Under the pieces are notes generated by a model that ran no database searches, was not told the DNA's origin, and was given only the letters and a program-made list of their open reading frames with translations. Of a DNA stretch of 64,000 bases, positions 8,448 through 34,800 are shown in pieces. The DNA is taken from contig NC_134032.1 in NCBI RefSeq assembly GCF_964204645.1, forward strand, positions 870,501-934,500, read 5' to 3'. Both the position numbers and the translations under genes were made by a program. This DNA is from Tubulanus polymorphus (lineage: Eukaryota; Nemertea; Palaeonemertea; Tubulaniformes; Tubulanidae). How positions within the stretch are numbered: position 1 is the stretch's first letter; every line of letters begins with the position of its first letter.

Positions 8448-8740
8448 AATTATTTCTGATTATTATACTGATTATTATACTGTTTCAGAGTGGTCCAGTA
8501 CAGGGGTGTCTAGGGTTCAAACCCAGTAATTACTGACACTTATTTAGAGTGGTCCTGATGCTGAATAGAGGATGTACAGGGGTGCCCAAGGTTCAAACCC
8601 AGTAATTACTGACACTTATTCAAGGTGGTCCTGATGCTGAATAGAGGATGTACAGGGGCCTCCCGGGATCGATCCCGGTCTATTGGTACTGATCCAGAGT
8701 GTTCCTGATGCTGAATAGATGATGTATTGGCGTGTACCGG

Positions 8741-8787
8741 CCGTACGGTGCTGCCGCTATGCTCATCGTTAGCGGGTTTTTCATACC
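8741..8787. repeat. Truncated foldback unit (left arm only)
   Basis: The first foldback copy of the satellite. The left arm CCGTACGGTGCTGCCGC is present to TTTTTCATAC, then jumps directly to the sequence that normally follows the right arm (AAAATTTTGATATC). The loop and right arm were lost, as expected for deletion of a hairpin. Confidence 0.8.
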
Positions 8788-11700
8788 CGAAAAATTTTGA
8801 TATCTTAACAAAAGTAATTTCTGGCACTTATTTAGAGTGGTCCTGATGCTGAACAGAGGATGTACAGGGGTGTTCCGGGTTCGATCCCGGTCTATTAGTA
8901 TTGATTCTGAGTGGTCCTGATGCTGAATAGAGGATGTCCAGGGGTTTCCAGATTTCAAACCCAGTAATTACTGGCACTTATTCAAAGTGGTCCTGATGCT
9001 GAATGGAGGATGTACAGAGGCCTCCCGGGATCGATCCCGGTCTATTGGTACTGATTCTGAGTGGTCCTGATGCTGAATAGAGGATGTACAGGGGTGCCCA
9101 GGTTCGATCCTGGTCTATTGGTACTGATTTTGAGTGGTCCTGATGCTGGATAGAGAATGTACAGGGTCGTCCCGGGTTCGATCCCTGTCTATTGGTACTG
9201 ATTCTGAGTGGTCCTGATGCTGAATAGAGGATATACAGGGTCGTCCCGGGTTCGATCCCGGTCTATTGGTACTGATTCTGAGTGGTCCTGATGCTGGATA
9301 GAGAATGTACAGGGTCGTCCCGGGTTCGATCCCTGTCTATTGGTACTGATTCTGAGTGGTCCTGATGCTGAATAGAGGATGTCCAGGGGTTTCCAGGGTT
9401 CACACCCAGTAATTACTGGCACTTATTCAAAGTGGTCCTGATGCTGAATAGAGGATGTACAGGGGTGCCCAGGTTCGATCCTGGTCTATTGGTACTGATT
9501 CTGAGTGGTCCTGATGCTGGATAGAGGATGTACAGGGGTGCCCAGGTTCGATCCCGGTCTATTGGTACTGATTCTGAGTGTTCCTGATGCTGAATAGAGG
9601 ATGTATTAGCGTGTACCGGCCGTACGGTGCTGCCGCTATGCTCATCGTTAGCGGGTTTTTCATACACTAACGTAAGTCAACTCTGGCAATCGACGTGCTC
9701 TCCAGTAATATTCCGTAACCCTTGCTTGCCAGAGTAGACTTAAGTTAGTGTATGAAAATCCCGCTAACAATGAGCATAGCGGCAGCACCGTACGGTAAAA
9801 TTTTGATATCTTTACAAAAGTAATTTCTGCCACTTATTTAGAGTGGTCCTGGGCCTGATGCTGAATAGAGGATGTACAGGGGTGTCCCGGGTTCGATCCC
9901 GGTCTATTGGTACTGATTCTGAGTGGTCCTGATGCTGGATAGAGGATGTACAGGGGTGTCCAGGGGTGTCCAGGGTTCCAACCCAGTAATTACTCACACT
10001 TATTCAGAGTGGTACTGATGCTGAATAGAGGATGTACAGGGGTGCCCAGGTTGGATCCCTGTCTATTGGTACTGATTCTGAGTGGTCCTGATGCTGAATA
10101 AAGGATGTACAGGGGTGCCCAGGTTCGATCCTGGTCTATTGGTACTGATTCTGAGTGTTCCTGATGCTGAATAGAGGAGGTATTAGCGTGTACCGGCCGT
10201 ACGGTGCTGCCGCTATGCTCATCGTTAGCGGGTTTTTCATACACTAACGTAAGTCAACTCTGGCAATCGACGTGCTCTCCAGTAATACTCCGTAACCCTT
10301 GCTTGCCAGAGTAGACTTACGTTAGTGTAGGCAAATCCCGCTAACAATGAGCATAGCGGCAGGACCGTACGGTAAAATTTTGATATCTTAACAAAAGTAA
10401 TTTCTGGCACTTATTTAGAGTGGTCCTGATGCTGAACAGAGGATGTACAGGGGTGTTCCGGGTTCGATCCCGGTCTATTGGTACTGATTCTGAGTGGTCC
10501 TGATGCTGAATAGAGGATGTACAGGGGTGCCCAGGTTCGATCCTGGTCTATTGGTACTGATTCTGAGTGTTCCTGATGCTGAATAGAGGATGTGTTGGCG
10601 TGTACCGGCCGTACGGTGCTGCCGCTATGCTCATCGTTAGCGGGTTTTTCATACACTAACGTAAGTCAACTCTGGCAATCGACGTGCTCTCCAGTAATAC
10701 TCCGTAACCCTTGCTTGCCAGAGTAGACTTACGTTAGTGTATGAAAATCCCGCTAACGATGAGCATAGCGGCAGCACCGTCCGGTAAAATTTTGATATCT
10801 TAACAAAAGTAATTTCTGGCACTTATTTAGAGTGGTCCTGATGCTGAACAGACGATGTACAGGGGTGTTCCGGGTTCGATCCCGGTCTATTAGTATTGAT
10901 TCTGAGTGGTCCTGATGCTGAATAGAGGATGTACAGGGGTGCCCAGGTTCGATCCTGGTCTATTGGTACTGATTCTGAGTGGTCCTGATGCTGGATAGAG
11001 GATGTACAGGGGTGCCCAGGTTCGATCCCGGTCTATTGGTACTGATTCTGAGTGTTCCTGATGCTGAATAGAGGATGTATTAGCGTGTACCGGCCGTACG
11101 GTGCTGCCGCTATGCTCATCGTTAGCGGGTTTTTCATACACTAACGTAAGTCAACTCTGGCAATCGACGTGCTCTCCAGTAATACTCCGTAACCCTTGCT
11201 TGCCAGAGTAGACTTACGTTAGTGTATGAAAATCCCGCTAACAATGAGCATAGCGGCAGCACCGTACGGTAAAATTTTGATATCTTAACAAAAGTAATTT
11301 CTGGCACTTATTTAGAGTGGTCCTGGGCCTGATGCTGAATAGAGGATGTACAGGGGTGTCCCGGGTTCGATCCCGGTCTATTGGTACTGATTCTGAGTGG
11401 TCCTGATGCTGGATAGAGGATGTACAGGGGTGTCCAGGGTTCCAACCCAGTAATTACTCACACTTATTCAGAGTGGTACTGATGCTGAATAGAGGATGTA
11501 CAGGGGTGCCCAGGTTGGATCCCTGTCTATTGGTACTGATTCTGAGTGGTCCTGATGCTGAATAAAGGATGTACAGGGGTGCCCAGGCTCGATCCCGGTC
11601 TATTGGTACTGATTCTGAGTGTTCCTGATGCTGAATAGAGGATGTATTAGCGTGTACCGGCCGTACGGTGCTGCCGCTATGCTCATCGTTAGCGGGTTTT

Positions 11701-14700
11701 TCATACACTAACGTAAGTCAACTCTGGCAATCGACGTGCTCTCCAGTAATACTCCGTAACCCTTGCTTGCCAGAGTAGACTTAAGTTAGTGTATGAAAAT
11801 CCCGCTAACAATGAGCATAGCGGCAGCACCGTACGGTAAAATTTTGATATCTTTACAAAAGTAATTTCTGCCACTTATTTAGAGTGGTCCTGATGCTGAA
11901 CAGAGGATGTACAGGGGTGTTCCGGGTTCGATCATGGTCTATTGGTACTGATTCTGAGTGGTCCTGATGCTGAATAGATGATGTACAGGGGTGCCCAGGT
12001 TCGATCCTGGTCTATTGGTACTGATTCTGAGTGTTCCTGATGCTGAATAGAGGATGTGTTGGCGTGTACCGGCCGTACGGTGCTGCCGCTATGCTCATCG
12101 TTAGCGGGTTTTTCATACACTAACGTAAGTCAACTCTGGCAATCGACGTGCTCTCCAGTAATACTCCGTAACCCTTGCTTGCCAGAGTAGACTTACGTTA
12201 GTGTATGAAAATCCCGCTAACAATGAGCATAGCGGCAGCACCGTACGGTAAAATTTTGATATCTTAACAAAAGTAATTTCTGGAACTTATTTAGAGTGGT
12301 CCTGATGCTGAACAGAGGATGTACAGGGGTGTTCCGGGTTCGATCCCGGTCTATTAGAATTGATTCTGAGTGGTCCTGATGCTGGATAGAGGATGTCCAG
12401 GGGTTTCCAGATTTCAAACCCAGTAATTACTGGCACTTATTCAAAGTGGTCCTGATGCTGAATGGAGGATGTACAGGGGCCTCCCGGGATCGATCCCGGT
12501 CTATTGGTACTGATTCTGAGTGGTCCTGATGCTGGATAGAGGATGTACAGGGGTGTCCAGGGTTCCAACCCAGTAATTACTGACACTCATTCAGAGTGGT
12601 ACTGATGCTGAATAGAGGATGTACAGGGGTGCCCAGGTTGGATCCCGGTCTATTGGTACTGATTCTGAGTGGTCCTGATGCTGGATAGAGAATGTACAGG
12701 GTCGTCCCGGGTTCGATCCCTGTCTATTGGTACTGATTCTGAGTGGTCCTGATGCTGAATAGAGGATGTATTAGCGTGTACCGGCCGTACGGTGCTGCCG
12801 CTATGCTCATCGTTAGCGGGTTTTTCATACACTAACGTAAGTCAACTCTGGCAATCGACGTGCTCTCCAGTAATACTCCGTAACCCTTGCTTGCCAGAGT
12901 AGACTTACGTTAGTGTAGGCAAATCCCGCAAACAATGAGCATAGCGGCAGCACCGTACGGTAAAATTTTGATATCTTAACAAAAGTAATTTCTGGCACTT
13001 ATTTAGAGTTGTCCTGATGCTGAACAGAGGATGTACAGGGGTGTCCCGGGTTCGATCCCGGTCTATTGGTACTGATTCTGAGTGGTCCTGATGCTGAATA
13101 GAGGATGTGCAGGGGTGCCTAGGTTCGATCCTGGTCTATTGGTACTGATTCTGAGTGTTCCTGATGCTGAATAGAGGATGTATTAGCGTGTACCGGCCGT
13201 ACGGTGCTGCCGCTATGCTCATCGTTAGCGGGTTTTTCATACACTAACGTAAGTCAACTCTGGCAATCGACGTGCTCTCCAGTAATACTCCGTAACCCTT
13301 GCTTGCCAGCGTAGACTTACGTTAGTGTATGCAAATCCCGCTAACAATGAGCATAGCGGCAGCACCGTACGGTAAAATTTTGATATCTTAACAAAAGTAA
13401 TTTCTGGAACTTATTTAGAGTGGTCCTGATGCTGAACAGAGGATGTACAGGGGTGTTCCGGGTTCGATCCCGGTCTATTAGAATTGATTCTGAGTGGTCC
13501 TGATGCTGGATAGAGGATGTCCAGGGGTTTCCAGATTTCAAACCCAGTAATTACTGGCACTTATTCAAAGTGGTCCTGATGCTGAATGGAGGATGTACAG
13601 GGGCCTCCCGGGATCGATCCCGGTCTATTGGTACTGATTCTGAGTGTTCCTGATGCTGAATAGAGGATGTATTAGCGTGTACCGGCCGTACGGTGCTGCC
13701 GCTATGCTCATCGTTAGCGGGTTTTTCATACACTAACGTAAGTCAACTCTGGCAATCGACGTGCTCTCCAGTAATACTCCGTAACCCTTGGTTGCCAGAG
13801 TAGACTTACGTTAGTGTAGGCAAATCCCGCTAACAATGAGCATAGCGGCAGCACCATACGGTAAAATTTTGATATCTTAACAAAAGTAATTTCTGGCACT
13901 TATTTAGAGTGGTCCTGATGCTGAACAGAGGATGTACAGGGGTGTTCCGGGTTCGATCCCGGTCTATTAGTATTGATTCTGAGTGGTCCTGATGCTGAAT
14001 AGAGGATGTACAGGGGTGTTCCGGGTTCGATCCCGGTCTATTGGTACTCATTCAGAGTGGTACTGATGCTGAACAGAGGATGTACAGGGGTGTCCCGGGT
14101 TCGATCCCGGTCTATTAGTATTGATTCTGAGTGGTCCTGATGCTGAATAGAGGATGCACAGAGGTGTTCCGGGTTCGATCCCGGTCTATTAGAATTGATT
14201 CTGAGTGGTCCTGATGCTGAATAGATGATGTACAGGGTCGTCCCGGGTTCGATCCCTGTCTATTGGTACTCATTCAGAGTGGTACTGATGCTGAATAGAG
14301 GATGTACAGGGGTGCCTAGGTTCGATCTTGGTCTATTGGTACTGATTCTGAGTGGTCCTGATGCTGGATAGAGAATGTACAGGGTCGTCCCGGGTTCGAT
14401 CCCTGTCTATTGGTACTGATTCTGAGTGTTCCTGATGCTGAATAGAGGATGTACAGGGGTGCCCAGGTTCGATCCTGGTCTATTGGTACTGATTCTGAGT
14501 GGTCCTGATGCTGAATAGAGGATGTATTGGCGTGCACCGGCCGTACGGTGCTGCCGCTATGCTCATCGTTAGCGGGTTTTTCATACACTAACGTAAGTCA
14601 ACTCTGGCAATCGACGTGCTCTCCAGTAATACTCCGTAACCCTTGCTTGCCAGAGTAGACTTACGTTAGTGTAGGCAAATCCCGCTAACAATGAGCATAG

Positions 14701-17700
14701 CGGTAGCACCGTACGGTAAAATTTTGATATCTTAACAAAAGTAATTTCTGGCACTTATTTAGAGTTGTCCTGATGCTGAACAGAGGATGTACAGGGTTGT
14801 CCCGGGTTCGATCCCGGTCTATTGGTACTGATTCTAAGTGGTCCTGATGCTGAATAGAGGATGTACAGGTGTGTCCTGGGTTCGATCCCGGTCTATTGGT
14901 ACTGATTCTGAGTGGTCCTGATGCTGGATAGAGAATGTACAGGGGCCTCCCGGGATCGATCCCGGTCTATTGGTACTGATTCTGAGTGTTCCTGATGCTG
15001 AATAGAGGATGTATTAGCGTGTACCGGCCGTACGGTGCTGCCGCTATGCTCATCGTTAGCGGGTTTTTCATACACTAACGTAAGTCAACTCTGGCAATCG
15101 ACGTGCTCTCCAGTAATACTCCGTAACCCTTGCTTGCCAGAGTAGACTTACGTTAGTGTATGCAAATCCCGCTAACAATGAGCATAGCGGCAGGACCGTA
15201 CGGTAAAATTTTGATATCTTAACAAAAGTAATTTCTGGAACTTATTTAGAGTGGTCCTGATGCTGAACAGAGGATGTACAGGGGTGTTCCGGGTTTGATC
15301 CCGGTCTATTAGAATTGATTCTGAGTGGTCCTGATGCTGAATAGAGAATGTACAGGGTCGTCCCGGGTTCGATCCCTGTCTATTGGTTCTGATTCTGAGT
15401 GGTCCTGATGCTGGATAGAGAATGTACAGGGTCGTCCCGGGTTCGATCCCTGTCTATTGGTACTGATTCTGAGTGGTCCTGATGCTGAATAGAGGATGCA
15501 CAGGCGTTTTCAGATTTCAAACCCATTAAACACTGGCACTTATTCAAAGTGGTACTGATGCTGAATAGAGGATGTACAGGGGTGTTCCGGGTTCGATCCC
15601 GGTCTATTAGTATTGATTCTGAGTGGTCCTGATGCTGAATAGAGGATGTCCAGGCGTTTCCAGATTTCAAACCCAGTAATTACTGGCACCTATTCAAAGT
15701 GGTCCTGATGCTGAATAGAGGATGTACAGGGGCCTCCCGGGATCGATCCTGGTCTATTGGTACTGATTCTGAGTGGTCCTGATGTTGAACAGAGGATGCA
15801 CAGGGGTGCCCAGGTTGGATCCTGGTCTATTGGTACTGATTCTGAGTGGTCCTGATGCTGAACAGAGGATGCACAGGGGTGTTCCGGGTTCGATCCCGGT
15901 CTATTAGTATTGATTTTGAGTGTTCCTGATGCTGAATAGAGGATGTATTGGCGTGTACCGGCCGTACGGTGCTGCCGCTATGCTCATCGTTAGCGGGTTT
16001 TTCATACACTAACGTAAGTCAACTCTGGCAATCGACGTGCTCTCCAGTAATACTCCGTAACCCTTGCTTGCCAGAGTAGACTTACGTTAGTGTATGAAAA
16101 TCCCGCTAACAATGAGCATAGCGGCAGGACCGTACGGTAAAATTTTGATATCTTAATAAAAGTAATTTCTGGCACTTATTTAGAGTGGTCCTGATGCTGA
16201 ACAGAGGATGTACAGGGGTGTTCCGGGTTCGATCCCGGTCTATTGGTACTGATTCTGAGTGGTCCTGATGCTGAATAGAGGATGTCCAGGGGTTTCCAGA
16301 TTTCAAACCCAGTAATTACTGGCACTTATTCAAAGTGGTCCTGATGCTGAATAGAGGATGTACAGGGGCCTCCCGGGATCGATCCCGGTCTATTGGTACT
16401 GATTCTGAGTGGTTCTGATGCTGGATAGAGAATGTACAGGGTCGTCCCGGGTTCGATCCCTGTCTATTGGTACTGATTCTGAGTGGTCCTGATGCTGAAT
16501 AGAGGATGTACAGGGGTGCCCAGGTTGGATCCCTGTCTATTGGTACTGATTCTGAGTGGTCCTGATGCTGAATAGAGGATATACAGGGGTGTCCAGGGTT
16601 CGACCCCGGTCTATTGGTACTGATTCTGAGTGGTCCTGATGCTGGATAGAGGATGTACAGGGTCGTCCCGGGTTCGATCCCTGTCTATTGGTACTGATTC
16701 TGAGTGGTCCTGATGCTGAATAGAGGATGTACAGGGGTGTTCAGGGTTCGATCCCGGTCTATTGGTACTGATTCTGAGTGGTTCTGATGCTGGATAGAGG
16801 ATGTCCAGGGGTTTCCAGGGTTCAAACCCAGTAATTACTGACACTCATTCAAAGTGGTCCTGATCTGAATAGAGGATGTACAGGGGCCTCCCGGGATCGA
16901 TCCCGGTCTATTGGTACTGATTCTGAGTGGTCCTGATGCTGGATAGAGAGTGTACAGGGTCGTCCCGGGTTCGATCCCTGTCTATTGGTACTGATTCTGA
17001 GTGGTCCTGATGCTGAATATAGGATGTACAGGGGTGCCCTGGTTCGATCCTGGTCTATTGGTACTGATTCTGAGTGTTCCTGATGCTGAATAGAGGATGT
17101 ATTGGCGTGTACCGGCCGTACGGTGCTGCCGCTATGCTCATCGTTAGCGGGTTTTTCATACACTAACGTAAGTCAACTCTGGCAATCGACGTGCTCTCCG
17201 TAATACTCCGTAACCCTTGCTTGCCAGAGTAGACTTACGTTAGTGTATGAAAATCCCGCTAACAATGAGCATAGCGGCAGCACCGTCCGGTAACATTTTG
17301 ATATCTTAACAAAAGTAATTTCTGGCACTTATTTAGAGTGGTCCTGATGCTGAACAGAGGATGTACAGGGGTGTTCCGGGTTCGATCCCGGTCTATTAGT
17401 ATTGATTCTGAATGGTCCTGATGCTGAATAGAGGATGTCCAGGCGTTTCCAGATTTCAAACCCAGTAATTACTGGCACCTATTCAAAGTGGTCCTGATGC
17501 TGAATAGAGGATGTACAGGGGCCTCCCGGGATCGATCCCGGTCTATTGGTACTGATTCTGAGTGGTCCTGATGTTGAACAGAGGATGCACAGGGGTGTTC
17601 CGGGTTCGATCCCGGTCTATTAGTATTGATTCTGAGTGGTCCTGATGCTGAATAGAGGATGTACAGGGGTGCCCAGGTTCGATCCTGGTCTATTGGTACT

Positions 17701-18719
17701 GATTCTGAGTGTTCCTGATGCTGGATAGAGAATGTACAGGGTCGTCCCGGGTTCGATCCCTGTCTATTGGTACTGATTCTGAGTGGTCCTGATGCTGAAT
17801 AGAGGATGTACAGGGGTGCCCAGGTTCGATCCCGGTCTATTGGTACTGATTCTGAGTGTTCCTGATGCTGAATACAGGATGTATTGGCGTGTACCGGCCG
17901 TACGGTGCTGCCGCTATGCTCATCGTTAGCGGGTTTTTCATACACTAACGTAAGTCAACTCTGGCAATCGACGTGCTCTCCAGTAATACTCCGTAACCCT
18001 TGCTTGCCAGAGTAGACTTGCGTTAGTGTATGAAAATCCCGCTAACAATGAGCATAGCGGCAGCACCGTATGGTAAAATTTTGATATCTTAAAAGTAATT
18101 TCTGGCACTTATTTAGAGTGGTCCTGATGCTGAACAGAGGATGTACAGGGGTGTTCCGGGTTCGATCCCGGTCTATTAGTATTGATTCTGAGTGGTCCTG
18201 ATGCTGAATAGAGGATGTCCAGGGGTTTCCAGATTTCAAACCCAGTAATTACTGGCACTTATTCAAAGTGGTCCTGATGCTGAATAGAGGATGTACAGGG
18301 GCCTCCCGGGATCGATCCCGGTCTATTGGTACTGATTCTGAGTGGTCCTGATGTTGAACAGAGGATGCACAGGGGTGTTCCGGGTTCGATCCTGGTCTAT
18401 TGGTACTGATTCTGAGTGGTCCTGATGCTGAATAGAGGATGTACAGGGTCGTCCCGGGTTCGATCCCGGTCTATTGGTACTGATTCTGAGTGTTCCTGAT
18501 GCTGAATAGATGATGTATTGGCGTGTACCGGCCGTACGGTGCTGCCGCTATGCTCATCGTTAGCGGGTTTTTCATACACTAACGTAAGTCAACTCTGGCA
18601 ATCGACGTGCTCTCCAGTAATACTCCGTAACCCTTGCTTGCCAGAGTAGACTTACGTTAGTGTATGCAAATCCCGCTAACTATGAGCATAGCGGCAGCAC
18701 CGTACGGTAAAATTTTGAT

Positions 18720-21700
18720 GTCTTAACAAAAGTAATTTCTGGCACTTATTTAGAGTGGTCCTGATGCTGAACAGAGGATGTACAGGTGTGTCCTGGGTTC
18801 GATCCCGGTCTATTAGTATTGATTCTGAGTGGTCCTGATGCTGAATAGAGGATGTCCAGGGGTTTCCAGGGTTCAAACCCAGTAATTACTGGCACTTATT
18901 CAAAGTGGTCCTGATCTGAATAGAGGATGTACAGGGGCCTTCCGGGTTCGATCCCTGTCTATTGGTACTGATTCTGAGTGGTCCTGATGCTGGATAGAGA
19001 GTGTACAGGGTCGTCCCGGGTTCGATCCCTGTCTATTGGTACTGATTCTGAGTGGTCCTGATGCTGAATAGAGAGTGTACAGGGTCGTCCCGGGTTCGAT
19101 CCCTGTCTATTGGTACTGATTCTGAGTGGTCCTGATGCTGAATAGAGGATGTACAGGGGTGCCCTGGTTCGATCCTGGTCTATTGGTACTGATTCTGAGT
19201 GTTCCTGATGCTGAATAGAGGATGTATTGGCGTGTACCGGCCGTACGGTGCTGCCGCTATGCTCATCGTTAGCGGGTTTTTCATACACTAACGTAAGTCA
19301 ACTCTGGCAATCGACGTGCTCTCCAGTAAAACTCCGTAACCCTTGCTTGCCAGAGTAGACTTACGTTAGTGTATGAAAATCCCGCTAACAATGAGCATAG
19401 CGGCAGCACCGTCCGGTAAAATTTTGATATCTTAACAAAAGTAATTTCTGGCACTTATTTAGAGTGGTCCTGATGCTGAACAGAGGATGTACAGGGGTGT
19501 CCCGGGTTCGATCCCGGTCTATTAGTATTGATTCTGAATGGTCCTGATGCTGAATAGAGGATGTCCAGGGGTTTCCAGATTTCAAACCCAGTAATTACTG
19601 GCACCTATTCAAAGTGGTCCTGATGCTGAATAGAGGATGTACAGGGGTGTTCCGGGTTCGATCCCGGTCTATTAGTATTGATTCTGAGTGGTCCTGATGC
19701 TGGATAGAGGATGTACAGGGGTGTTCCGGGTTCGATCCCGGTCTATTAGTATTGATTCTGAGTGGTCCTGATGCTGAATAGAGGATGTCCAGGGGCCTCC
19801 CGGGATCGATCCCGGTCTATTGGTACTGATTCTGAGTGGTCCTGGTGCTGGATAGAGAGTGTACAGGGTCGTCCCGGGTTCGATCCCTGTCTATTGGTAC
19901 TGATTCTGAGTGGTCCTGATGCTGAATAGAGGATGTACAGGGTCGTCCCGGGTTCGATCCCTGTCTATTGGTACTGATTCTGAGTGGTCCTGATGCTGAA
20001 TAGAGGATGTACAGGGGTGCCCAGGTTCGATCCTGGTCTATTGGTACTGATTCTGAGTGGTCCTGGTGCTGAATAGAGGATGTGTTGGCGTGTACCGGCC
20101 GTACGGTGCTGCCGCTATGCTCATCGTTAGCGGGTTTTTCATACACTAACGTAAGTCAACTCTGGCAATCGACGTGCTCTCCAGTAATACTCCGTAACCC
20201 TTGCTTCCCAGAGTAGACTTACGTTAGTGTATGAAAATCCCGCTAACAATGAGCATAGCGGCAGCACCGTCCGGTAAAATTTTGATATCTTAACAAAAGT
20301 AATTTCTGGCACTTATTTAGAGTGGTCCTGATGCTGAACAGACGATGTACAGGGGTGTTCCGGGTTCGATCCCGGTCTATTAGTATTGATTCTGAGTGGT
20401 CCTGATGCTGAATAGAGGATGTCCAGGCGTTTCCAGATTTCAAACCCAGTAATTACTGGCACCTATTCAAAGTGGTCCTGATGCTGAATAGAGGATGTAC
20501 AGGGGCCTCCCGGGATCGATCCCGGTCTATTGGTACTGATTCTGAGTGGTCCTGATGTTGAATAGAGGATGTACAGGGGTGCCCAGGTTGGATCCTGGTC
20601 TATTGGTACTGATTCTGAGTGTTCCTGATGCTGAATAGAGGATGTATTGGCGTGTACCGGCCGTACGGTGCTGCCGCTATGCTCATCGTTAGCGGGTTTT
20701 TCATACACTAACGTAAGTCAACTCTGGCAATCGACGTGCTCTCCAGTAACACTCCGTAACCCTTGCTTCCCAGAGTAGACTTACGTTAGTGTATGAAAAT
20801 CCCGCTAACAATGAGCATAGCGGCAGCACCGTCCGGTAAAATTTTGATATCTTAACAAAAGTAATTTCTGGCACTTATTTAGAGTGGTCCTGATGCTGAA
20901 CAGAGGATGTACAGGTGTGTCCTGGGTTCGATCCCGGTCTATTAGTATTGATTCTGAGTGGTCCTGATGCTGAATAGAGGATGTCCAGGGGTTTCCAGGG
21001 TTCAAACCCAGTAATTACTGGCACTTATTCAAAGTGGTCCTGATCTGAATAGAGGATGTACAGGGGTGTTCCGGGTTCGATCCCTGTCTATTGGTACTGA
21101 TTCTGAGTGGTCCTGATGCTGGATAGAGAGTGTACAGGGTCGTCCCGGGTTCGATCCCTGTCTATTGGTACTGATTCTGAGTGGTCCTGATGCTGAATAG
21201 AGAGTGTACAGGGTCGTCCCGGGTTCGATCCCTGTCTATTGGTACTGATTCTGAGTGGTCCTGATGCTGAATAGAGGATGTACAGGGGTGCCCTGGTTCG
21301 ATCCTGGTCTATTGGTACTGATTCTGAGTGTTCCTGATGCTGAATAGAGGATGTATTGGCGTGTACCGGCCGTACGGTGCTGCCGCTATGCTCATCGTTA
21401 GCGGGTTTTTCATACACTAACGTAAGTCAACTCTGGCAATCGACGTGCTCTCCAGTAAAACTCCGTAACCCTTGCTTGCCAGAGTAGACTTACGTTAGTG
21501 TATGAAAATCCCGCTAACAATGAGCATAGCGGCAGCACCGTCCGGTAAAATTTTGATATCTTAACAAAAGTAATTTCTGGCACTTATTTAGAGTGGTCCT
21601 GATGCTGAACAGAGGATGTACAGGGGTGTCCCGGGTTCGATCCCGGTCTATTAGTATTGATTCTGAATGGTCCTGATGCTGAATAGAGGATGTCCAGGGG

Positions 21701-22717
21701 TTTCCAGATTTCAAACCCAGTAATTACTGGCACCTATTCAAAGTGGTCCTGATGCTGAATAGAGGATGTACAGGGGTGTTCCGGGTTCGATCCCGGTCTA
21801 TTAGTATTGATTCTGAGTGGTCCTGATGCTGGATAGAGGATGTACAGGGGTGTTCCGGGTTCGATCCCGGTCTATTAGTATTGATTCTGAGTGGTCCTGA
21901 TGCTGAATAGAGGATGTCCAGGGGCCTCCCGGGATCGATCCCGGTCTATTGGTACTGATTCTGAGTGGTCCTGGTGCTGGATAGAGAGTGTACAGGGTCG
22001 TCCCGGGTTCGATCCCTGTCTATTGGTACTGATTCTGAGTGGTCCTGATGCTGAATAGAGGATGTACAGGGTCGTCCCGGGTTCGATCCCTGTCTATTGG
22101 TACTGATTCTGAGTGGTCCTGATGCTGAATAGAGGATGTACAGGGGTGCCCAGGTTCGATCCTGGTCTATTGGTACTGATTCTGAGTGGTCCTGGTGCTG
22201 AATAGAGGATGTGTTGGCGTGTACCGGCCGTACGGTGCTGCCGCTATGCTCATCGTTAGCGGGTTTTTCATACACTAACGTAAGTCAACTCTGGCAATCG
22301 ACGTGCTCTCCAGTAATACTCCGTAACCCTTGCTTCCCAGAGTAGACTTACGTTAGTGTATGAAAATCCCGCTAACAATGAGCATAGCGGCAGCACCGTC
22401 CGGTAAAATTTTGATATCTTAACAAAAGTAATTTCTGGCACTTATTTAGAGTGGTCCTGATGCTGAACAGACGATGTACAGGGGTGTTCCGGGTTCGATC
22501 CCGGTCTATTAGTATTGATTCTGAGTGGTCCTGATGCTGAATAGAGGATGTCCAGGCGTTTCCAGATTTCAAACCCAGTAATTACTGGCACCTATTCAAA
22601 GTGGTCCTGATGCTGAATAGAGGATGTACAGGGGCCTCCCGGGATCGATCCCGGTCTATTGGTACTGATTCTGAGTGGTCCTGATGTTGAATAGAGGATG
22701 TACAGGGGTGCCCAGGG
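18720..22717. repeat. Near-identical 2.1-kb higher-order duplication
   Basis: Roughly 18720-20588 and 20849-22717 are nearly identical at a constant offset of 2129 bp, including the order of variant monomers and two foldback units each. Only small differences are seen (for example near 18940 against 21065). Beyond 20588/22717 the copies diverge. This is a recent tandem duplication inside the satellite. Confidence 0.85.
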
Positions 22718-23101
22718 TTCCAACCCAGTAATTACTCACACTTATTCAGAGTGGTACTGATGCTGAATAGAGGATGTACAGGGGTGCCCAGGTTGGATCC
22801 CTGTCTATTGGTACTGATTCTGAGTGGTCCTGATGCTGAATAGAGGATGTACAGGGGTGCCCAGGTTGGATCCCTGTCTATTGGTACTGATTCTGAGTGG
22901 TCCTGATGCTGAATAGAGGATGTACAGGGGTGCCCACGTTCGATCCTGGTCTATTGGTACTGATTCTGAGTGTTCCTGATGCTGAATAGAGGATGTATTA
23001 GCGTGTACCGGCCGTACGGTGCTGCCGCTATGCTCATCGTTAGCGGGTTTTTCATACACTAACGTAAGTCAACTCTGGCAATCGACGTGCTCGCTCTCCA
23101 G

Positions 23102-23433
23102 AGGCCTTTTTATGAACACTCGATTAGTATATTCGAGTATGCAAAACGTTTTTATGAGCATGGATTATGTCATAATCCGTCATTTTTATGAACATTGGTT
23201 ATCATAATCGATTAGCATACTCAGCATACTCGCTCGGCGAGCAAGTATGCCGATTATCTAATCCAACCGAAATGGTGTTCTCGGTAGAAGTCGCTGCTGA
23301 GTAGGCCATAAGTGAATAATTTCTACCTGGCGTTTTTATCAACCAACATACCCGGTTATGCTAATTGACACTAATCGGCTATATAATCTAAATAGCTAAT
23401 CTATTTCGATTTTGCTGGTTCATAAAAAGGCCT
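23102..23433. mobile_element. 332-bp MITE nested in a foldback unit
   Basis: Terminal inverted repeats AGGCCTTTTTATGAAC / GTTCATAAAAAGGCCT, flanked on both sides by CAG (23099-23101 and 23434-23436), a likely 3-bp target duplication. It is inserted in the loop of the foldback copy beginning at 23012. No open reading frame; non-autonomous. It is present in only this one satellite copy, so it arrived after amplification. Confidence 0.85.
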
Positions 23434-24110
23434 CAGTAATACTCCGTAACCCTTGCTTGCCAGAGTAGACTTACGTTAGTGTATGCAAATCCCGCTAACA
23501 ATGAGCATAGCGGCAGCACCGTACGGCAAATCTTTGATGTCTTAACAAAAGTAATTTCTGGCACTTATTTAGAGTGGTCCTGATGCTGAATAGAGGATGT
23601 ACAGGGGTGTTCCGGGATCGATCCCGGTCTATTGGTACTGATTCTGAGTGCCGGGGTCCTGATGCTGGATAGAGAATGTACAGGGTCGTCCCGGGTTCGA
23701 TCCCTGTCTATTGGTACTGATTCTGAGTGGTCCTGATGCTGAATAGAGGATGTACAGGGGTGCCCAGGTTCGATCCTGGTCTATTGTTACTGATTCTGAG
23801 TGTTCCTGATGCTGAATAGATGATGTATTGACGTGTATCGGCCGTACGGTGCTGCCGCTATGCTCATCGTTAGCGGGTTTTTCATACATTAACGTAAGTC
23901 AACTCTGGCAATCGACGTGCTCTCCAGTAATACTCCGTAACCCTTGCTTGCCAGAGTAGACTTACGTTAGTGTATGTAAATCCCGCTAACAATGAGCATA
24001 GCGGCAGCACCGTACGGTAAAATGTTGATATCTTAACAAAAGTAATTACTGGCACTTACTCAAGGTGGTCCTTATGCTGAATAGAGGATGTACAGGTGTG
24101 TCCCGGGCTC

Positions 24111-25862: not shown

Positions 25863-28800
25863 TCAGTGTTTGTTTAGTTCTGTTAAAGGTATCGCAGGTC
25901 GACTGAAGTCTAATTCACCGTACAATCCGACGTCTTCCTCGGCGCCTAGGATCACTCGTGGAGCAGTACGCCCCCTAGAGGTGCTCGGTTGAAGCCTCGC
26001 GGTGTCCGGTCGGGACATGTTGTCTAGTCGTGCATAGATCGTCCCATCTTCACCGATATCCTGGAGACAAAAAAGATGTTTAATTATCTCGCAATTTATG
26101 CGGGTATTAACAACCGTTACCGCCCTCAGTGTGGACCCCTCACCCCCTCAGTGTGGACCCCTCACCCCCTCAGTGTGGACCCCTCACCCCCTCAGTGTGG
26201 ACTCCTCTGTCGAAACCCTGCACCCCCTCAGCCAGAAACTTGCATTCCCTTCAGATTGTTGAAGTGTTGGCTCCATGCTATAGATTGAGGGAGTGTGGGT
26301 GGCTCCACGCTATAGATTGAGGGGGTGTGGGTGGCTCCATGCGATAGATTGAGGGGATGTGGGTGGATCCATGCTATAGATCGAGGGGGTGTGGGTGGCT
26401 CCACGCTAAAGATCGAGGGGGTGTGGGTGGTTCCACGCTTTAGATCGAGGGGGTGTGGGTGGCTCCATGCTATAGATCGAGGGGGTGTGGGTGGCTCCAC
26501 GCTATAGATCGAAGGGGTGTAGGTTGTTCCATGCTATAGATCGAGGGGGTGTGGGTGGATCTAGGTCGGGATACAAACCTCAATATAAACACTTTCAGCC
26601 GTGAAATCATCATCTTCGGCATTCTCAACTAGAAAAAAAAAATACATTTCAGAAATAGAATCGGTTTAAGAAATTCAAAACGGATTCCGGCTGGACGCGA
26701 GGACCTGCGCGCGCACCTTCAATGAAACCGACACCAGCAGCAGGTGGAGTAGCTGGAGTAGATGGAGCAGCTGGAGGAACAGTTCGTCTGCCGATCCGAG
26801 CTACAAAACACAGAGAAATATCGCGTTATCACGGAGAATTCCGACGGAGTCAGTTAGGTCATTTCAAACATGTTAAAACACGAGTTACCACTAGCGCCAA
26901 CGGAACATTCATAAACGACATCCGGTTCAGAAACCACATCTGAAAAAAGAAATAGACGAATATTTAACAGTTCAGTGAAATCATCGCCACATTACAACCT
27001 GTCGTCTCTATATTTTGAGTCTCAATTTGTATTTCTAATTCATTTTACTAAGTGTAAGTCGTCATTTGGATAAGTCGTCACATTACTGAAGTCATCTCTA
27101 TTTTTTAACTCCTAATTCTTATTTCTGATTCATTTCACTCTAAGAGTTTCACTGTATTTCTCATCAACAGTAAACTTTTTTAGGTCAAGGACTCGATGAG
27201 TTTTAGGAATAGTTTGTTTCGGAATTAAGGAAGGACTAGTACCGGTACTAGTACTGAACTGTTCACTGCACTAGCCAAATCTACGGATTAGAACCTACAG
27301 TTTATAGTTAATTTACGGTTCATATGGTTGCCAGTTATTAAGAGTAAGACAAGAAAATAAGATAAAAACCCACTATCTACAAATTAAAAGAATTCAAAAA
27401 CAAGAATTAATTTATTCAATCTAAAATATATAGAATACTCGACGTTTCGATCTCACCCAAGATATCATCGTCAGGTGTCTGAGATCGAAACGTCGTGTAT
27501 TCTATATATATTTTAGATTGAATAAATAAATTCTTGTTTTTAAATTCTTTTTAATCTGTAAATAGTGGGATTTTATCTTATTATCCGTTCACCACGTTTG
27601 AGTGTGGTTATCGTTCTATTACAAGAAGTTTTGAGCACCAAATGATAGAACGATATCGGGTATTGTAATCAGGTCATCACACCTGACTGGTCACCACTCG
27701 ACTGTGATGATTGCTTAGGGCTAATTCCACACGTCTATGTCTTGCCTAGATCATAAATATTTGGTGATAATCTTCGAGTCTAAAAATTCATATTTCTAAT
27801 TCAATTTTCTAAGTGTAAGTCATCATTTGTATGAACTGTCAGCATCATTATCGGGTTCCTGACTAATATAGACAATCTCTAGATATTACAATAATTTATG
27901 CATGGAATATTCACTAGGTTCCGATGCTGATGAAACTGGATTTACAGCAATATTACGACATTGAGTGACGAGTTCTCAAACCCCGTGTAAAAGATAAACA
28001 ACAAACCAGTAGTATCCCTGTTATACATGTTTCTGCGGTGTATATACAACACGACCGTTACTACGATAATGATTGCGATCACAATTGTGAAACCGATTGC
28101 ACTGCCAACTGTTGCCCAGAAACTAGCCATCGCAGAACCAGCATTTTTAGAATCTGCAATTATATAAAACCCACCAGTATGTACACAGTTTCAAATTAAT
28201 TATTTTCGTGGCATTTTTGTTTCAAAAAAAAAAGTTTTTTGAGTAACATGATTTAATCGCGGTATTTATTTCGCAAATGAATGTAAACTTTCTAAACCTT
28301 TGGTGATCAATAAAAATAACTCACTTGATGTTGAGGTGGTTTCTGTGACTTGTGTCACTGTTGATGGTCCTACAATTATAAATATATATATGTTTGTTCA
28401 ATTTTAAAATGGTACCTAACCCAACCTGCAAGGGGCTCATGTAACCAATTGATTGTACACTTTTTAAACATCTGTAAAAATAACTCACTTGATGTTGAGG
28501 TGGTTTCTGTGACTTGTGTAACTGTTGATGGTCCTACAATGATATATTATGGATTTTGAATATGGTTCGACTCGTGGCGCCGCCGTGTTTTAACTGAAGT
28601 TCAAGTAACAGGACTTAGATTCAACTCCACACTATCAAACAAACTAACAACTTACGCAACCATTTTCGGGCTTAAGAAGTCACAACTGTGCAGGTTGTGC
28701 TACTCACCAAAACCTACAGTGTTTAACTCGATGTACTCATTGTGGTACTCACCAAACTGTACAGTGTTTAACTCGATGTACTCATCGTGGTACTCACCAA

Positions 28801-31800
28801 ACTGTACAGTGTTTTTTAACTCGATGTACTCATTGTGGTACTCACCAAACTGTACAGCGTTTAACTCGATGTACTCATTGTGGTACTCACCAAACTGCAC
28901 AGTGTTTAACTCGATTTACTCATTGTGGTACTCACCAAACTGTACAGTGTTTAACTCGATGTACTCATTGTGGTACTCACCAAACTGCACAGTGTTTAAC
29001 TCAATAAAAGCCACTTGATTCGATCTAATGTATGTGATGGCGGATGAGTAGATCATCGTTTTTGTTGTGTCAGCGACAAATTGTTGATTCGGGAAAATCT
29101 TACTGGAGATCATTGTGAACTACAATGAGAAAATCATCAGAGATAGATTTAAAAACCTGAGTGAGGTGTGAGGTGAGGGAGTGAGGAGAAGCGAGAGGGT
29201 ATGAGGAGGGTAGAGTAGAAGGGGAGATTGTGAGGGGTGAGGAGGTGAGAGAGTGAGAGGGTGTGAGGTGAGAGTGAGAGGGTGTGAGGAGGTGAGGGAG
29301 TGAGGAGTGAGAGAGTTAGTGAGGAGGTGAGGGAGTGAGAGGGTGTGAGGAGGGTAGAGTAGGAGGGGGATTGTGAGGGGTGAGGAGGTGAGAGAGTGAG
29401 AGGGTGTGAGGTGAGAGTGAGAGGGTGTGAGGAGGTGAGGGAGTGAGGAGTGAGAGAGTTAGTGAGGAGGTGAGGGAGTGAGAGGGTGTGAGGAGGGTAG
29501 AGTAGGAGGGGAGATTGTGAGGGGTGAGGAGGGGAGATTGTGAGGGGTGAGGAGGTGAGAGTGAGAGGGTATGAGGAGGGTAGAGTAGGAGGGGAGATTG
29601 TGAGGGGTGAGGAGGGGAGATTGTGAGGGGTGAGGAGGTGAGAGTGAGAGGGTATGAGGAGGGTAGAGTAGGAGGGGAGATTGTGAGGGGTGAGGAGGGG
29701 AGATTGTGAGGGGTGAGGAGGTGAGAGTGAGATGGTGTGAGGAGGGTAGAGTAGGAGGGGAGATTGTGAGGGGTGAGGAGGGGAGAGTGAGAGGGTGTGA
29801 GGAGGGTAGAGTAGGAGGGGAGATTGTGAGGGGTGAGGAGGGGAGATTGTGAGGGGTGAGGAGGTGAGAGTGAGAGGGTATGAGGAGGGTAGAGTAGGAG
29901 GGAGATTGTGAGGGGTGAGGAGGGGAGATTGTGAGGGGTGAGGAGGTGAGAGTGAGAGGGTATGAGGAGGGTAGAGTAGAAGGGGAGATTGTGAGGGGTG
30001 AGGAGGGGAGATTGTGAGGGGTGAGGAGGTGAGGGAGTGAGAGGGTGTGAGGAGGGTAGAGTAGGAGGGGAGATTGTGAGGGGTGAGGATGGCGGTGAGA
30101 GGGAGTAAGGGGAAGAGGGCAACTGGGAACCTGTATTACTTATTGTTCATCGAGAACTACAACAAGAAAATCATCAGAAACAAATTGTAAAATTTGAGAG
30201 AGGTGAGGGAGTGAGGAGGAAAGAGGGGTGAGATTTGTATTGATTATTTCAATCAATTCACCTGAAAAATGTAAATCGTTGATGATCCTCGATTCCAGAT
30301 AGCGACGCGAGTAGGTTGACCTATATTACGAGCAGGTTGACCTACATTACAGGTAGGTTGACCTAGATCACGAGTTTTGGTGGTTAGCATCTGTATCTGG
30401 TGACCTGTAGTGATGTGACCGAGTCGACTGAAACCAGATTGAACTCCATTCGATCCAAACAGATTCATATAAAGCTCCTCAGTTTCTTTATCAGTTTTAA
30501 TCTTGATTTTCCATTCAACTGAAACAATTAAAACTGTCATTAACAATCACTGTGTTTATAACTGATAGTTATATTCATCAATATTTGTGTTGAGAAATTC
30601 ATCAAATTCAGATCTAATTTTGCACCTTCTCTGGTTGTATTCGGGACCAGAGAAACTTCGTTGTAATCGTTTCTACCCAAGAGAACATTAAAACCGAAAT
30701 ACGTTTCAGTGACGTTATCAGATTTGAGTTCAACCTGAAATAATGTGCATAAACAAGTGTATAAACGACTGTGAATTCATTTTACCAGTCCGGACTACAG
30801 TTTAGGACTTATTGACAACTTACTCGTTTTAGGAACCACCAATTTTCTCCATATCCTGGTTCGCATTTTATTTTTACAGTTTTAGGTTTTCCAATATTTC
30901 TCGTGAAGATGATCACATCTTTTCGTTCTCTGTGTTCCCCGAATAGTGAACCTAGATATGTAAACTGTGATTCATTTCGGTCACCGATAATCTGAATATC
31001 AACTCTTCCACTGGTATAGTGTAACCTGGAACTACTCCGCTTGATTCCACTAAAAACAGCGATCTGCCATTTAACTAGAAATAACAGGAAAAAAATATGA
31101 CTTTTCACACTTGACCTCGATCTGTGAGGAGGGACCCTTTTACGACCTTTGAGGATAATTCAAACACCGGATAATCATCATTATCACCATTATTTCAGCG
31201 TGGAGCCTTAGTAGACTTTACACCTTGCCCGCTTGGGGCGTTAAGTTGCTCATAACTCAGGTTTTAAAAGAACAGGTTTGTTAGCCTAGGCTTACCGCCA
31301 CAGTCTAATTATAAGTTCAGTTCATAAGGTATTCTGCGTTCAATAATACGTTTTAACGAACCTGGTTTATGAATTCTTGATTGATAATTACAAGTCTTTG
31401 TGTCTGCATAGCTGTTAATACAGTTATACATGTACACAACATTGTCACCATCTATCACACCTACTAGCGCCACCTATTGAATATAAATATATGAGTTAAT
31501 ATCAAATTCACACCGGCCTCTCTCTCCCCTCCCTCTCCATATTTCTATAACCTGGATGACGCGCCAGTTTGTAGTCAGTGCAGTTTTCAGCATGAGTTTT
31601 CTCGGTGGATGTGGATTTGTGATGTTCACTGGTAACAACAGTTCGTGAGTCTTGTTTGACCCGGCCTTGAACTCGGTTCCCAGGTGGAAGTACGTGACGT
31701 CACTACCTGTCTCACCGAAACCTAACATGACAGTTTGTGTTGTACCTGTATCCCCTGTAAACACTATCACCTGCCAAACTGAACCAGAAAGAAATAACAA

Positions 31801-34800
31801 CTGATTTATGTGGTATCCATGGATCTCATCAGTTTCAGAATTTCGTTCAAATATTTCAGTTTTTACCATTTTTATCATTAAGCTATCTTTACCTTTCCCT
31901 CGTACAAACCGCCAGGACAGTTTGAACCCGACATAGTTTCTAGAGGTGTCTGATGTGAATTGTATTGTTATATTTCCAATGTATAATCGTTTACCAGGAG
32001 CTGTCCAGCCACAATACTTATCACTCCCTGATGAAGAAATAAATCTGATAAAACTTCATGAATCATAAAAATTATTCACGTTGTGAAGTGTTTAGATTTT
32101 TACCGGTTTCACTCCTTATCGTCAACTCGTCACAACAAACAACTTCACTTTTGGTCTCTATACGAAAATTCTTGTCAAATGATATTTCAACCAGCTGCAA
32201 AAATATATATATACGAACTTAGAATTAAATTATCATTCATTATCTATTTCAGGAACCGTTTATTTTGATCAATTTTAACTTAAACCCGGAATTATCGGTT
32301 AAACTAAATCCCGGGATAAGGTTAGACCTAATCTTAGCCCCATTGAGTTTCTACTAGTGCAAATATTACTCACTCCTGAGACCTGCTCGTGCAGAAATCG
32401 CGACAATATCATTTTTTTTTCTCTAGGATCAACATTTCACAAATATATATTTACCATGTTTTCAGGGGATTTAATTATCCAGTAACAGTTGTGGCCGGAA
32501 TAATAGTCGTCCGGATAATTGGGACTGGTAATGTAACCTGATGTATCATCCTGTACTCTAGGTTTCTTACTACAAGTCGAATCAACTACAAATAAATATT
32601 GAATTGAATTGTTTTATATGTGATTTACTGATTCCATGATAAACTTCTCATTATGAGCTACCTTTTAATATCCTCCAAATCAGTTTAAACCCTTTATAGT
32701 TTTCACTGTTGTCTGATCTAAACTGTATATACACATTACCGGTATAGAATAGTGTAGAGGGCGCTGTACTGCCACAATAGTACTTTCCCCTTACTGTAAT
32801 ACAATAATCATAATGATTCTAATATATCTTTATTCATCTCCACTTTTACTAAATAATTATTATATAAATACTGATAAAAGATGAAAGTTAAAAGTAAATA
32901 CACAAATATAATTCAGAGTTCAGTTTCACTGACAAGATTTAAAACCATTCTAAAGAGTGAAGACTATTTTTGGACTCATGCGAAATTAAATCATGATTTG
33001 TTTCGTAAAAAGAAAATAATGAAGAACGTAATTCGATTCTTACTCTCTATATAGTCAACGCAATACCCGTTATGTTTGGGCTGCAGGTCGAATGTTTCAA
33101 ACGATATTTTCAGTATCTGAAATAAAAATAATTTAGATTCATCGTTATTGAAATGTGTTCGCACCATTCTAACTGGTTGTAATCATTAAGGGTTAGCCCT
33201 ATTGATAATGAGTGATGTAATGTAATAGTTAAACAGTTCAGCACCCGATTGTCAGGTTCAAAGAGAAAAATATAAGTTCCGTTCCAAACTCGTACAAAAT
33301 GTGCTGACAAAAATATTCTTCCTAAAGCCCGGCGCAAACCTGTGCGATCGATCGTATGATTGCTTCATCACATGGTTTTATCGCTTCGCCGTAAAGGTAT
33401 GCGGTGGCATCCGGAGCCGATTACATCGCATCATCGCAACAAATCAAACATGTTCGATATTTTCGCATGCCATTTTTCCGTGCTATCAAAATCGTAAAGG
33501 TCTGCGGGCTACGCTGCCGATTTTCCGAACGAAGTTTTTTTTAGTAGCTTTTAGAAGTTTTTAGGGGATGATGCAATTTTCATTGTGTCATCGCATGCGA
33601 TGATATGATGATCGCAAAGGTGTGCGCACCCGGTTTAACAGTGAATATTTCTCACTCTTGAGATTCACAATTTCCTGTGTTTTATATTTACCGTGTTTAC
33701 AGGTACCGGAATCATCCATAAACAGTAATGGTTGTAACGATAACTGTCCGGAAACCCCGGACTAGTGATGTACCCTGATCTACCGGTCTGTTCTCTATAT
33801 GACCGACTACACGTTGAATCTGTGTTCTTGTCTGCTAATATAGAAAAAATATCAATGAACTTATACAGAAACTGCTGCCGCCTGATATCATGGCGCGGAA
33901 ATACTATCAAAATTAAAGCAGCAAATTAATTTTATTCAAAATTCTGTCTCATTTCACAACACATTTTATAGACATACGGCGCTGACTATTAGGGGTTAAG
34001 GTTAGGTTGAGGGCTGGTAAAAGATTCCGACTGTATTTGACTGTGCCACGGTGGTCTAGTAGTAAGTAACTGTGCCAGCGCTCGCAGGCCTCAGTTTCAA
34101 TACTGTTCTATTTTCTCTCCGCTGTATTTTCTGTACACATTTTTAAAGTCGCGCACCTCAGTGCGCATGCGCGGTGTAAATTAGCCAATCAGAGCGAGTT
34201 ATCGGCAAAATAGTGTTTACAGGAATAATTATGCTACGTCGGTGAATCATCGCTCGCCCCCAAAAACCTGACCTGGTCTGAATAAAGATGGCCGACTAGC
34301 GGCCATTATTCTTCGCTGAAATCCGCACTTTAACACATTCTAAAAATTTTTAAGGGAAATTTTAAAGATGCTTTGATCAGTTCATCTTTCTTACATTTGT
34401 ATCTCCCAAGCGCCGATCGGCTTACGAAATAGGTCGGTCGGCTGTGTGTGATCGTTTTGTTCCCAAAAAGGTCGACTGATTTTGGTTTCACCTTTTGCTC
34501 TACGATCCTAGACACTAGGTTCGCGGTGTAATTTATGCCTGAATTCAGAGACCTTCATCTATTCCTCGCTTGCAAGGGTTTGATTCCCTACCGCTAACAC
34601 AAACCCTTCAATCGACTACTATATTGCCTATGCTTTATTGAAATAAAAGAATTGCCCATGAAAACTGCTTGCTACAGGTCCGGAACAACGGGTCATATTG
34701 GCCATTTACTGAAGTAGAAAGTCACAGTTTTAACTGCTGTCAATGTGTAATGTATAAATGCGTCACGTCAAAATCTAATCTATTAATAGATTTACAATCA

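What the first reader, a model, noticed from the sequence alone, without database searches (positions are those of the whole stretch)
28700..28999. Minisatellite that multiplies a splice donor in frame, a potential length-tuning device
Seen: the 45-bp repeat spans the exon/intron border of a receptor exon, so CAGTTTG|GTGAGTACC occurs in six copies plus one variant. Every unit is open and in frame (one is 48 bp, still a multiple of 3), so choice of any donor adds 0-6 copies of a 15-residue Tyr-rich unit (EYHNEYIELNTVQFG) next to the membrane stalk, always in the same phase for the next exon. The frame closes with TAG just after the last donor. Inference: a repeat-borne set of alternative 5' splice sites gives variable ectodomain length, with copy number likely to vary between individuals.
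Basis: partly seen in the sequence, partly recalled or inferred. Interest (0 to 1): 0.82.

Follow-up and report, generated by a model that had tools for sequence, protein, structure and literature searches.

The report
Repeat that copies a splice donor
A short DNA repeat has copied the end of one exon of an animal receptor gene several times, splice signal included, but one copy carries a stop codon, so it looks more like a harmless duplication behind the first splice signal than a device for tuning protein length.

Summary
The array is real: 28695-29002, minus strand, 45 bp x 6.8, with six exact copies of CAGTTTG|GTGAGTACC plus one variant. It lies on the 3' border of an exon of a CUB/PLAT-like receptor gene whose 19 modelled exons read open.

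A key claim fails: the unit between donors 2 and 3 has an in-frame TAA at 28918-28916. Only donor 1 (+0 residues) and donor 2 (+15) can give a full receptor here; donors 3-7 truncate it.

Paralogues on the same contig: six other array-bearing copies have 6, 4, 3, 2, 2 and 2 donor positions; an older paralogue has one donor and no array. One copy has lost its second donor (GT to CT), one has TGA before its last donor, one has stops before donor 1. Donor 1 is in frame in all five copies without a stop in the exons found. Distinct unit changes (9 nonsynonymous, 4 synonymous, 2 stop) show no depletion of stops.

Best reading: a labile minisatellite across a 5' splice site, donor 1 doing the work, the rest mostly neutral. 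A 0-4-unit ladder stays possible in copy L009. No splicing was observed.

The parts
28695..29002 (-). 45-bp minisatellite (6.8 copies, one unit of 48 bp): 25 nt of exon tail plus 20 nt of intron head per unit
   Evidence: TRF; units listed
28981..29119 (-). exon P3b (139 nt, starts at a codon border, ends in phase 1) ending at donor 1; read as the C-terminal half of the third PLAT-like unit (inference)
   Evidence: open gene model; similar exon in 7 other places of the genome; single-donor homologue in L014
28975..28980 (-). donor 1 GTGAGT: in frame in all five array-bearing copies without a stop in the exons found
28930..28935 (-). donor 2 GTGAGT: would add one 15-residue unit (EYHNEYIELNTVQFG), still in frame
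28916..28918 (-). in-frame TAA in the unit between donors 2 and 3; closes the frame for donors 3-7
28702..28890 (-). donors 3-7 (GT at 28890, 28845, 28797, 28752, 28707), same 9-mer TTG|GTGAGT, all downstream of the TAA
28489..28533 (-). stalk exon 1 (45 nt, PSTVTQVTETTSTS), next modelled exon after the array
28325..28369 (-). stalk exon 2, tandem copy of stalk exon 1
28007..28153 (-). transmembrane exon (hydrophobic stretch read by eye)
30262..30518 (-). exon P3a, read as the N-terminal half of the third PLAT-like unit; holds a 21-bp coding repeat x3.2
25863..33831 (-). modelled part of the host gene, 19 exons: two CUB domains, PLAT-like units, stalk, TM, tyrosine-bearing tail; the 5' end was not sought

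Best explanation
A 45-bp segment straddling the exon P3b/intron border was tandemly duplicated in a receptor gene that has several copies along one chromosome, and the array has since grown and shrunk copy by copy. Nearly every unit keeps the donor 9-mer TTG|GTGAGT. Donor 1, which sits at the exon end that the array-free older paralogue also has, makes the full-length receptor; the downstream copies lie in the intron and drift. Some use of other donors is likely, since the sites are alike. In this gene donor 2 would add one 15-residue unit, and donors 3-7 would bring in the TAA and give a transcript without stalk and membrane anchor (a decay substrate or a soluble fragment). Shown: the array, the alike donors, the frame, the stop, the copy-number differences, the single-donor paralogue. 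Inferred: that donor 1 is the main site, and that the array is mostly neutral.
For: The spliced 19-exon model using donor 1 is open to one terminal stop. The array-free paralogue L014 ends the homologous exon at the donor-1 position (GTGTTTG|GTGAAG). Five array-bearing copies have no stop in the exons found (window, L009, L010, L011, L012): donor 1 is present and in frame in 5 of 5, donor 2 in 4 of 5 (L012 has GT to CT); two of the five have a third donor at all, in frame in L009 and behind the TAA in the window. Of 15 distinct changes from the unit consensus over 19 units in seven copies, 2 make stops; equal mutation predicts 10 of 135, about 1.1. All seven window donors have the same score. 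Array length differs between related copies: window 7 donors, L007 4, sharing their last three units letter for letter.
Against: No transcript data. Identical tandem donors compete, and use of the intron-proximal one is common (recalled); here that would favour donor 7 and hence the stop, so the window gene could already be impaired despite its open model. Against pure drift: only 1 of the 15 distinct changes lies in the first 20 positions of the unit, which hold the donor; this was noticed after the fact, and two donor-side differences in last copies (GT to CT in L012, TAC to TAG after the last donor) were not in that count. TTG|GTGAGT scores only at the 20th percentile of 95 donors of this family, though at the 77th by a recalled general table. 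L010-L012 are near-identical and not independent.
Confidence: 0.7

Rival explanations
1. Length-tuning device: alternative choice among the repeated donors gives receptor ectodomains with different numbers of the 15-residue unit, and this variation is useful.
For: Alike donors, all spacings divisible by 3, and the same phase into the next exon. L009 is open to donor 5 (0-4 units), L010 and L011 to donor 2, L008 to donor 3 though that gene has a stop elsewhere. Exon P3b evolves fast: dN 0.11-0.13 and dS about 0.10 between the window copy and the five other array copies of equal length, against 4-5.4% in the intron behind the array. Repeat-borne splice sites that give copy ladders exist in human UBC (PMC10809524; abstract, section 7 and Discussion read).
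Against: TAA in the window array before donors 3-7; TGA before the last donor of L009; second donor lost in L012; no depletion of stops among unit changes.
Confidence: 0.13
2. Membrane/soluble switch or poison extension: use of donors 3-7 brings in the TAA and yields a receptor without stalk and anchor, or triggers decay, so the array sets the output of the receptor.
For: The stop lies after the PLAT-like units and before stalk and TM; L009 has a like layout with a different stop (TGA before donor 6); equal donor scores make some use likely.
Against: The two stops are different changes at different positions, and the arrays of L008, L010, L011 and L012 have none; that fits drift.
Confidence: 0.1
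3. Decay of a dying gene or an assembly fault: the copy is a pseudogene in the making, or the TAA or copy number is an assembly error.
For: L007 has stops in P3b and CUB2c, L008 a stop at the end of P2a, and L013 shows no P2a-P3b. Only one assembly is available.
Against: All 19 modelled exons of the window gene are open with GT and AG flanks at the joined borders; array units differ from copy to copy in an orderly way.
Confidence: 0.07

Closest known systems
Human polyubiquitin UBC and VCX3A: tandem repeats with dual-specific AGGT splice sites (PMC10809524; abstract, section 7 and Discussion read)
   Same: A splice site inside each repeat unit, unit length divisible by 3, copy number labile, so splicing can in principle change the number of encoded units.
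   Different: There a site can serve as 5' or 3' splice site and whole units are spliced out, with a ladder shown by RT-PCR for UBC. Here the site is a donor only (TG|GTGAGT, no AGGT at the donor), the array runs into the intron, and one unit has a stop.
Competing tandem 5' splice sites such as DOK7 intron 4 (PMC5585400; passages read, part of the abstract among them)
   Same: Adjacent donors upstream of one acceptor; choice depends on site strength and SRSF1 (the paper also names hnRNP A1); one choice truncates the protein.
   Different: Two sites 11 nt apart that differ in strength and frame; here seven sites with one 9-mer, 45-48 nt apart in one frame.
CUB-domain proteins (cubilin, neuropilins by sequence match)
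   Same: The CUB part matches cubilin (E 1.6e-32) and neuropilins.
   Different: PLAT-like units, duplicated stalk exons and a tyrosine-bearing tail; the 33 PDB sequences listed match the CUB part only.

Membership tests
Repeat-borne splice-site array of the UBC/VCX3A kind | a splice site in every repeat unit | tested here: met
   seven GTGAGT donors in the window array, one per unit; in L012 the second is CT
Repeat-borne splice-site array of the UBC/VCX3A kind | unit length a multiple of 3 | tested here: met
   spacings 45 or 48 in all seven copies
Repeat-borne splice-site array of the UBC/VCX3A kind | dual-specific AGGT site at the unit border | tested here: not met
   donor context is TTTG|GTGAGT; no AGGT in the unit consensus; AGGT appears only off the donor in the last window unit and last L007 unit
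Repeat-borne splice-site array of the UBC/VCX3A kind | all units coding and open | tested here: not met
   TAA in the window array, TGA in L009
Repeat-borne splice-site array of the UBC/VCX3A kind | ladder of spliced transcripts | not testable with these tools
   no transcript data
CUB/PLAT transmembrane receptor | CUB domains | tested here: met
   PF00431 E 1.9e-31, two stretches; cubilin and neuropilins by phmmer
CUB/PLAT transmembrane receptor | PLAT domain | tested here: inconclusive
   PF01477 22.9 bits against a cut-off of 23
CUB/PLAT transmembrane receptor | transmembrane segment and tyrosine-bearing tail | not tested
   read by eye in the translation; no predictor run
Coding VNTR | whole array translated as part of the mature mRNA | tested here: not met
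   in-frame TAA before the third donor; the full gene model needs donor 1 or 2

The most novel reading that the evidence does not exclude
In a fast-evolving animal receptor family, a minisatellite across a 5' splice site serves as an evolvable length dial: copies such as L009 (donors 1-5 open) splice a 0-4-unit ladder of a 15- or 16-residue juxtamembrane extension, while copies such as the window gene use the same donors to switch between anchored and truncated receptor.
Probability: 0.12. Interest if true: 0.72.

Novelty: new variant of a known kind. Interest (0 to 1): 0.36.

Why it matters
If several donors are used, this would be a natural series (1, 2, 3, 4, 6 and 7 donor sites in related genes of one genome) for measuring how the spliceosome chooses among alike tandem donors, a question mostly studied with artificial constructs (recalled). 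If only donor 1 is used, it shows how a repeat can run over a splice site without harm, because the first copy keeps the exon intact. Either way the stop in the window array limits the length-tuning claim.

Tried and rejected
RNA structure that hides donors: the 460-nt exon-plus-array RNA folds no better than shuffles (z 0.82, 79 of 100 shuffles at least as stable); dropped. Dual-specific (AGGT) splicing inside the array: no AGGT at the donors. L013 as the ancestral single-donor state: rejected, since P2a-P3b are not found there and only the last donor and its flank remain. Organism from mitochondrial COX1: no match in G000; organism not identified. Literature: searches on repeats and splice sites and 35 on CUB/PLAT receptors; two returned nothing, of the others I saw listings with starts of abstracts (25 of 45 papers, 20 of 22, 3, 2), and opened two papers. 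None of the listed titles or abstract starts describes a donor-only repeat ladder; the library is open-access only, so this is weak. tRNA genes in the 74-bp array: ARAGORN found none. Structure prediction was not used, because the spliced domain is not contiguous in the DNA.

Full report
What is there. The string CAGTTTGGTGAGTACC occurs six times exactly on the minus strand against 0.45 expected in shuffles, none of 100 shuffles reaching six. A seventh donor, TTTTG|GTGAGTAGC, follows with its GT at 28707. Spacings are 45, 45, 45, 48, 45, 45. All seven share the 9-mer TTG|GTGAGT and so the same score.

The host gene. I modelled 19 exons on the minus strand from 33831 to 25863. With donor 1 they join into one frame of 825 codons, open to a single terminal stop (length); the 5' end was not sought. 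Pfam gives CUB (E 1.9e-31, two stretches) and a borderline PLAT (22.9 bits, cut-off 23). By sequence the CUB part matches cubilin and neuropilins. The array sits at the end of exon P3b (29119-28981), which I read as the C-terminal half of the third PLAT-like unit; after it come two copies of a 45-nt stalk exon and a TM exon. Repeats cover 20% of this 11-kb segment, and in TRF P3b is the only window exon with a border inside an array.

The claim that fails. In the frame fixed by this model, the unit between donors 2 and 3 reads GEYHNE*IELNTVQF, with TAA at 28918-28916. Donor 1 adds nothing and donor 2 adds 15 residues. Donors 3-7 include the stop and lose stalk, membrane anchor and tail.

Paralogues. 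The window lies at C8:870501-934500 of a 267.8-Mb genome in 77 contigs. A search with the exon finds eight places, the window among them, all on contig C8 (8 of 8 candidates scored; such counts are lower bounds). The region search adds L013, where P2a to P3b are not found. Donor positions per array: window 7, L009 6, L007 4, L008 3, L010 2, L011 2, L012 2. The older paralogue L014 (exon 71% identical) has one donor, GTGTTTG|GTGAAG, and no array. The exon therefore ended at the donor-1 position before the array arose, as far as one outgroup can show.

Which donors can work. Of seven array-bearing copies I set aside two as broken: L007 (stops in CUB2c and P3b, one of them just before donor 1; P2a not found) and L008 (stop at the end of P2a, stalk donor ATGAGT). 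The five left are window, L009, L010, L011 and L012. For the last four not every exon was found or lay in the fetched stretch: CUB1b was not found in L009, and L010-L012 show no P2b and only part of P3a. In these five, donor 1 is in frame and intact in 5 of 5 and donor 2 in 4 of 5, because L012 has CT for GT. Only two of the five have a third donor: in L009 donors 3-5 are in frame (TGA stands before its donor 6), in the window they lie behind the TAA. L010, L011 and L012 are near-identical (1-2 differences in 230 intron sites), so they are not independent.

Selection. Over 19 units in seven copies there are 15 distinct changes from the consensus: 9 nonsynonymous, 4 synonymous, 2 stop. The opportunities are 102, 23 and 10 of 135. 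Stops are not depleted (2 against about 1.1 expected), though numbers are small and the set-aside copies L007 and L008 are in the count. One result points the other way: only 1 of the 15 changes falls in the first 20 positions, which carry the donor; it was noticed after the fact and leaves out the two donor-side differences seen in last copies.

Lability. The last three units of the window array equal the three units of L007 letter for letter, yet one has seven donors and the other four. The intron behind the array differs at 11 of 230 sites between these two, but L007 is closer there to L009 (5 of 225) and L008 (6 of 225), so the copies have probably exchanged sequence and their order of descent is not clear. 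Copy number has changed between gene copies in either case; variation between individuals was not tested.

How it most likely works. The first donor keeps the ancestral exon end and makes the receptor; the copies behind it ride in the intron. Because the sites are alike, some use of later donors is to be expected. Published work on DOK7 shows that choice between adjacent donors depends on strength and SRSF1 (PMC5585400, passages). From recall, identical sites often favour the intron-proximal one; if that holds here, much of the window gene's transcript would carry the TAA. That is the main uncertainty, and only cDNA can settle it.

Comparison. The nearest published kind that I found is the tandem repeat with a splice site in every unit, human UBC and VCX3A (PMC10809524; abstract, section 7 and Discussion). 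This case shares the unit length divisible by 3 and the site per unit, but not the dual-specific AGGT site nor open frames in all units. It would work like a donor-only variant if several donors are used; it is not a member as defined there. Six literature searches on repeats and splice sites (listings seen, two of them empty) showed no donor-only case, in an open-access library only.

Verdict. Real, well placed and unusual to look at, but the central inference is cut down by a stop in the array and by the paralogues. Interest 0.36.

Noticed in passing
window 28325-28369 and 28489-28533; L022:7042-7736: The 45-nt stalk exon is itself tandemly multiplied in units of about 162 bp: 2 copies in the window, L010, L011 and L012, 1 in L007, L008 and L009, 5 in L013 (two of those five with the donor changed to ATGAGT). 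This is a second, exon-level length variation right next to the membrane.
   Followed up: partly
window 29173-30105 (acceptor copy near 30157): The intron before exon P3b holds a C/T-rich minisatellite, and the acceptor region of P3b is duplicated on its far side (ttcttgttgtag|TTCTCGATGA against ttctcattgtag|TTCACAATGA), so both ends of this exon lie at repeats. The upstream copy would run into TAA after six codons.
   Followed up: partly
window exon 28981-29119 and paralogues: Exon P3b differs more between copies (dN 0.11-0.13, dS about 0.10, window against five array copies) than the intron behind the array (4-5.4%); dN/dS is 1.1-1.3. Possible diversifying selection, but counts are small, dS is raised too, and gene conversion is not excluded.
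   Followed up: partly
L014:3935-4085: The older paralogue carries about ten 15-bp repeats (GACCTCTACAACGGC, DLYNG in one frame) in the region of its cytoplasmic tail; frame in the gene not checked.
   Followed up: no
window 8498-23827: A long run of 74-bp satellite whose unit holds GGTTCGATCCC, like a tRNA B box (motif recalled); ARAGORN finds no tRNA gene in the window.
   Followed up: partly
window 30308-30375 and 26745-26776: Two coding repeats in the same gene: 21 bp x3.2 (GQP-rich) in exon P3a and 9 bp x3.6 (AP-rich) in a tail exon; both recur in some paralogues.
   Followed up: no
L016:8007-8153 and L020:7760-7900: The L009 and L008 copies have a diverged TM segment (about 70% identity over 95 of 147 positions) where L010-L013 have a TM exon about 90% identical to the window's; possible exon exchange between copies.
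   Followed up: no
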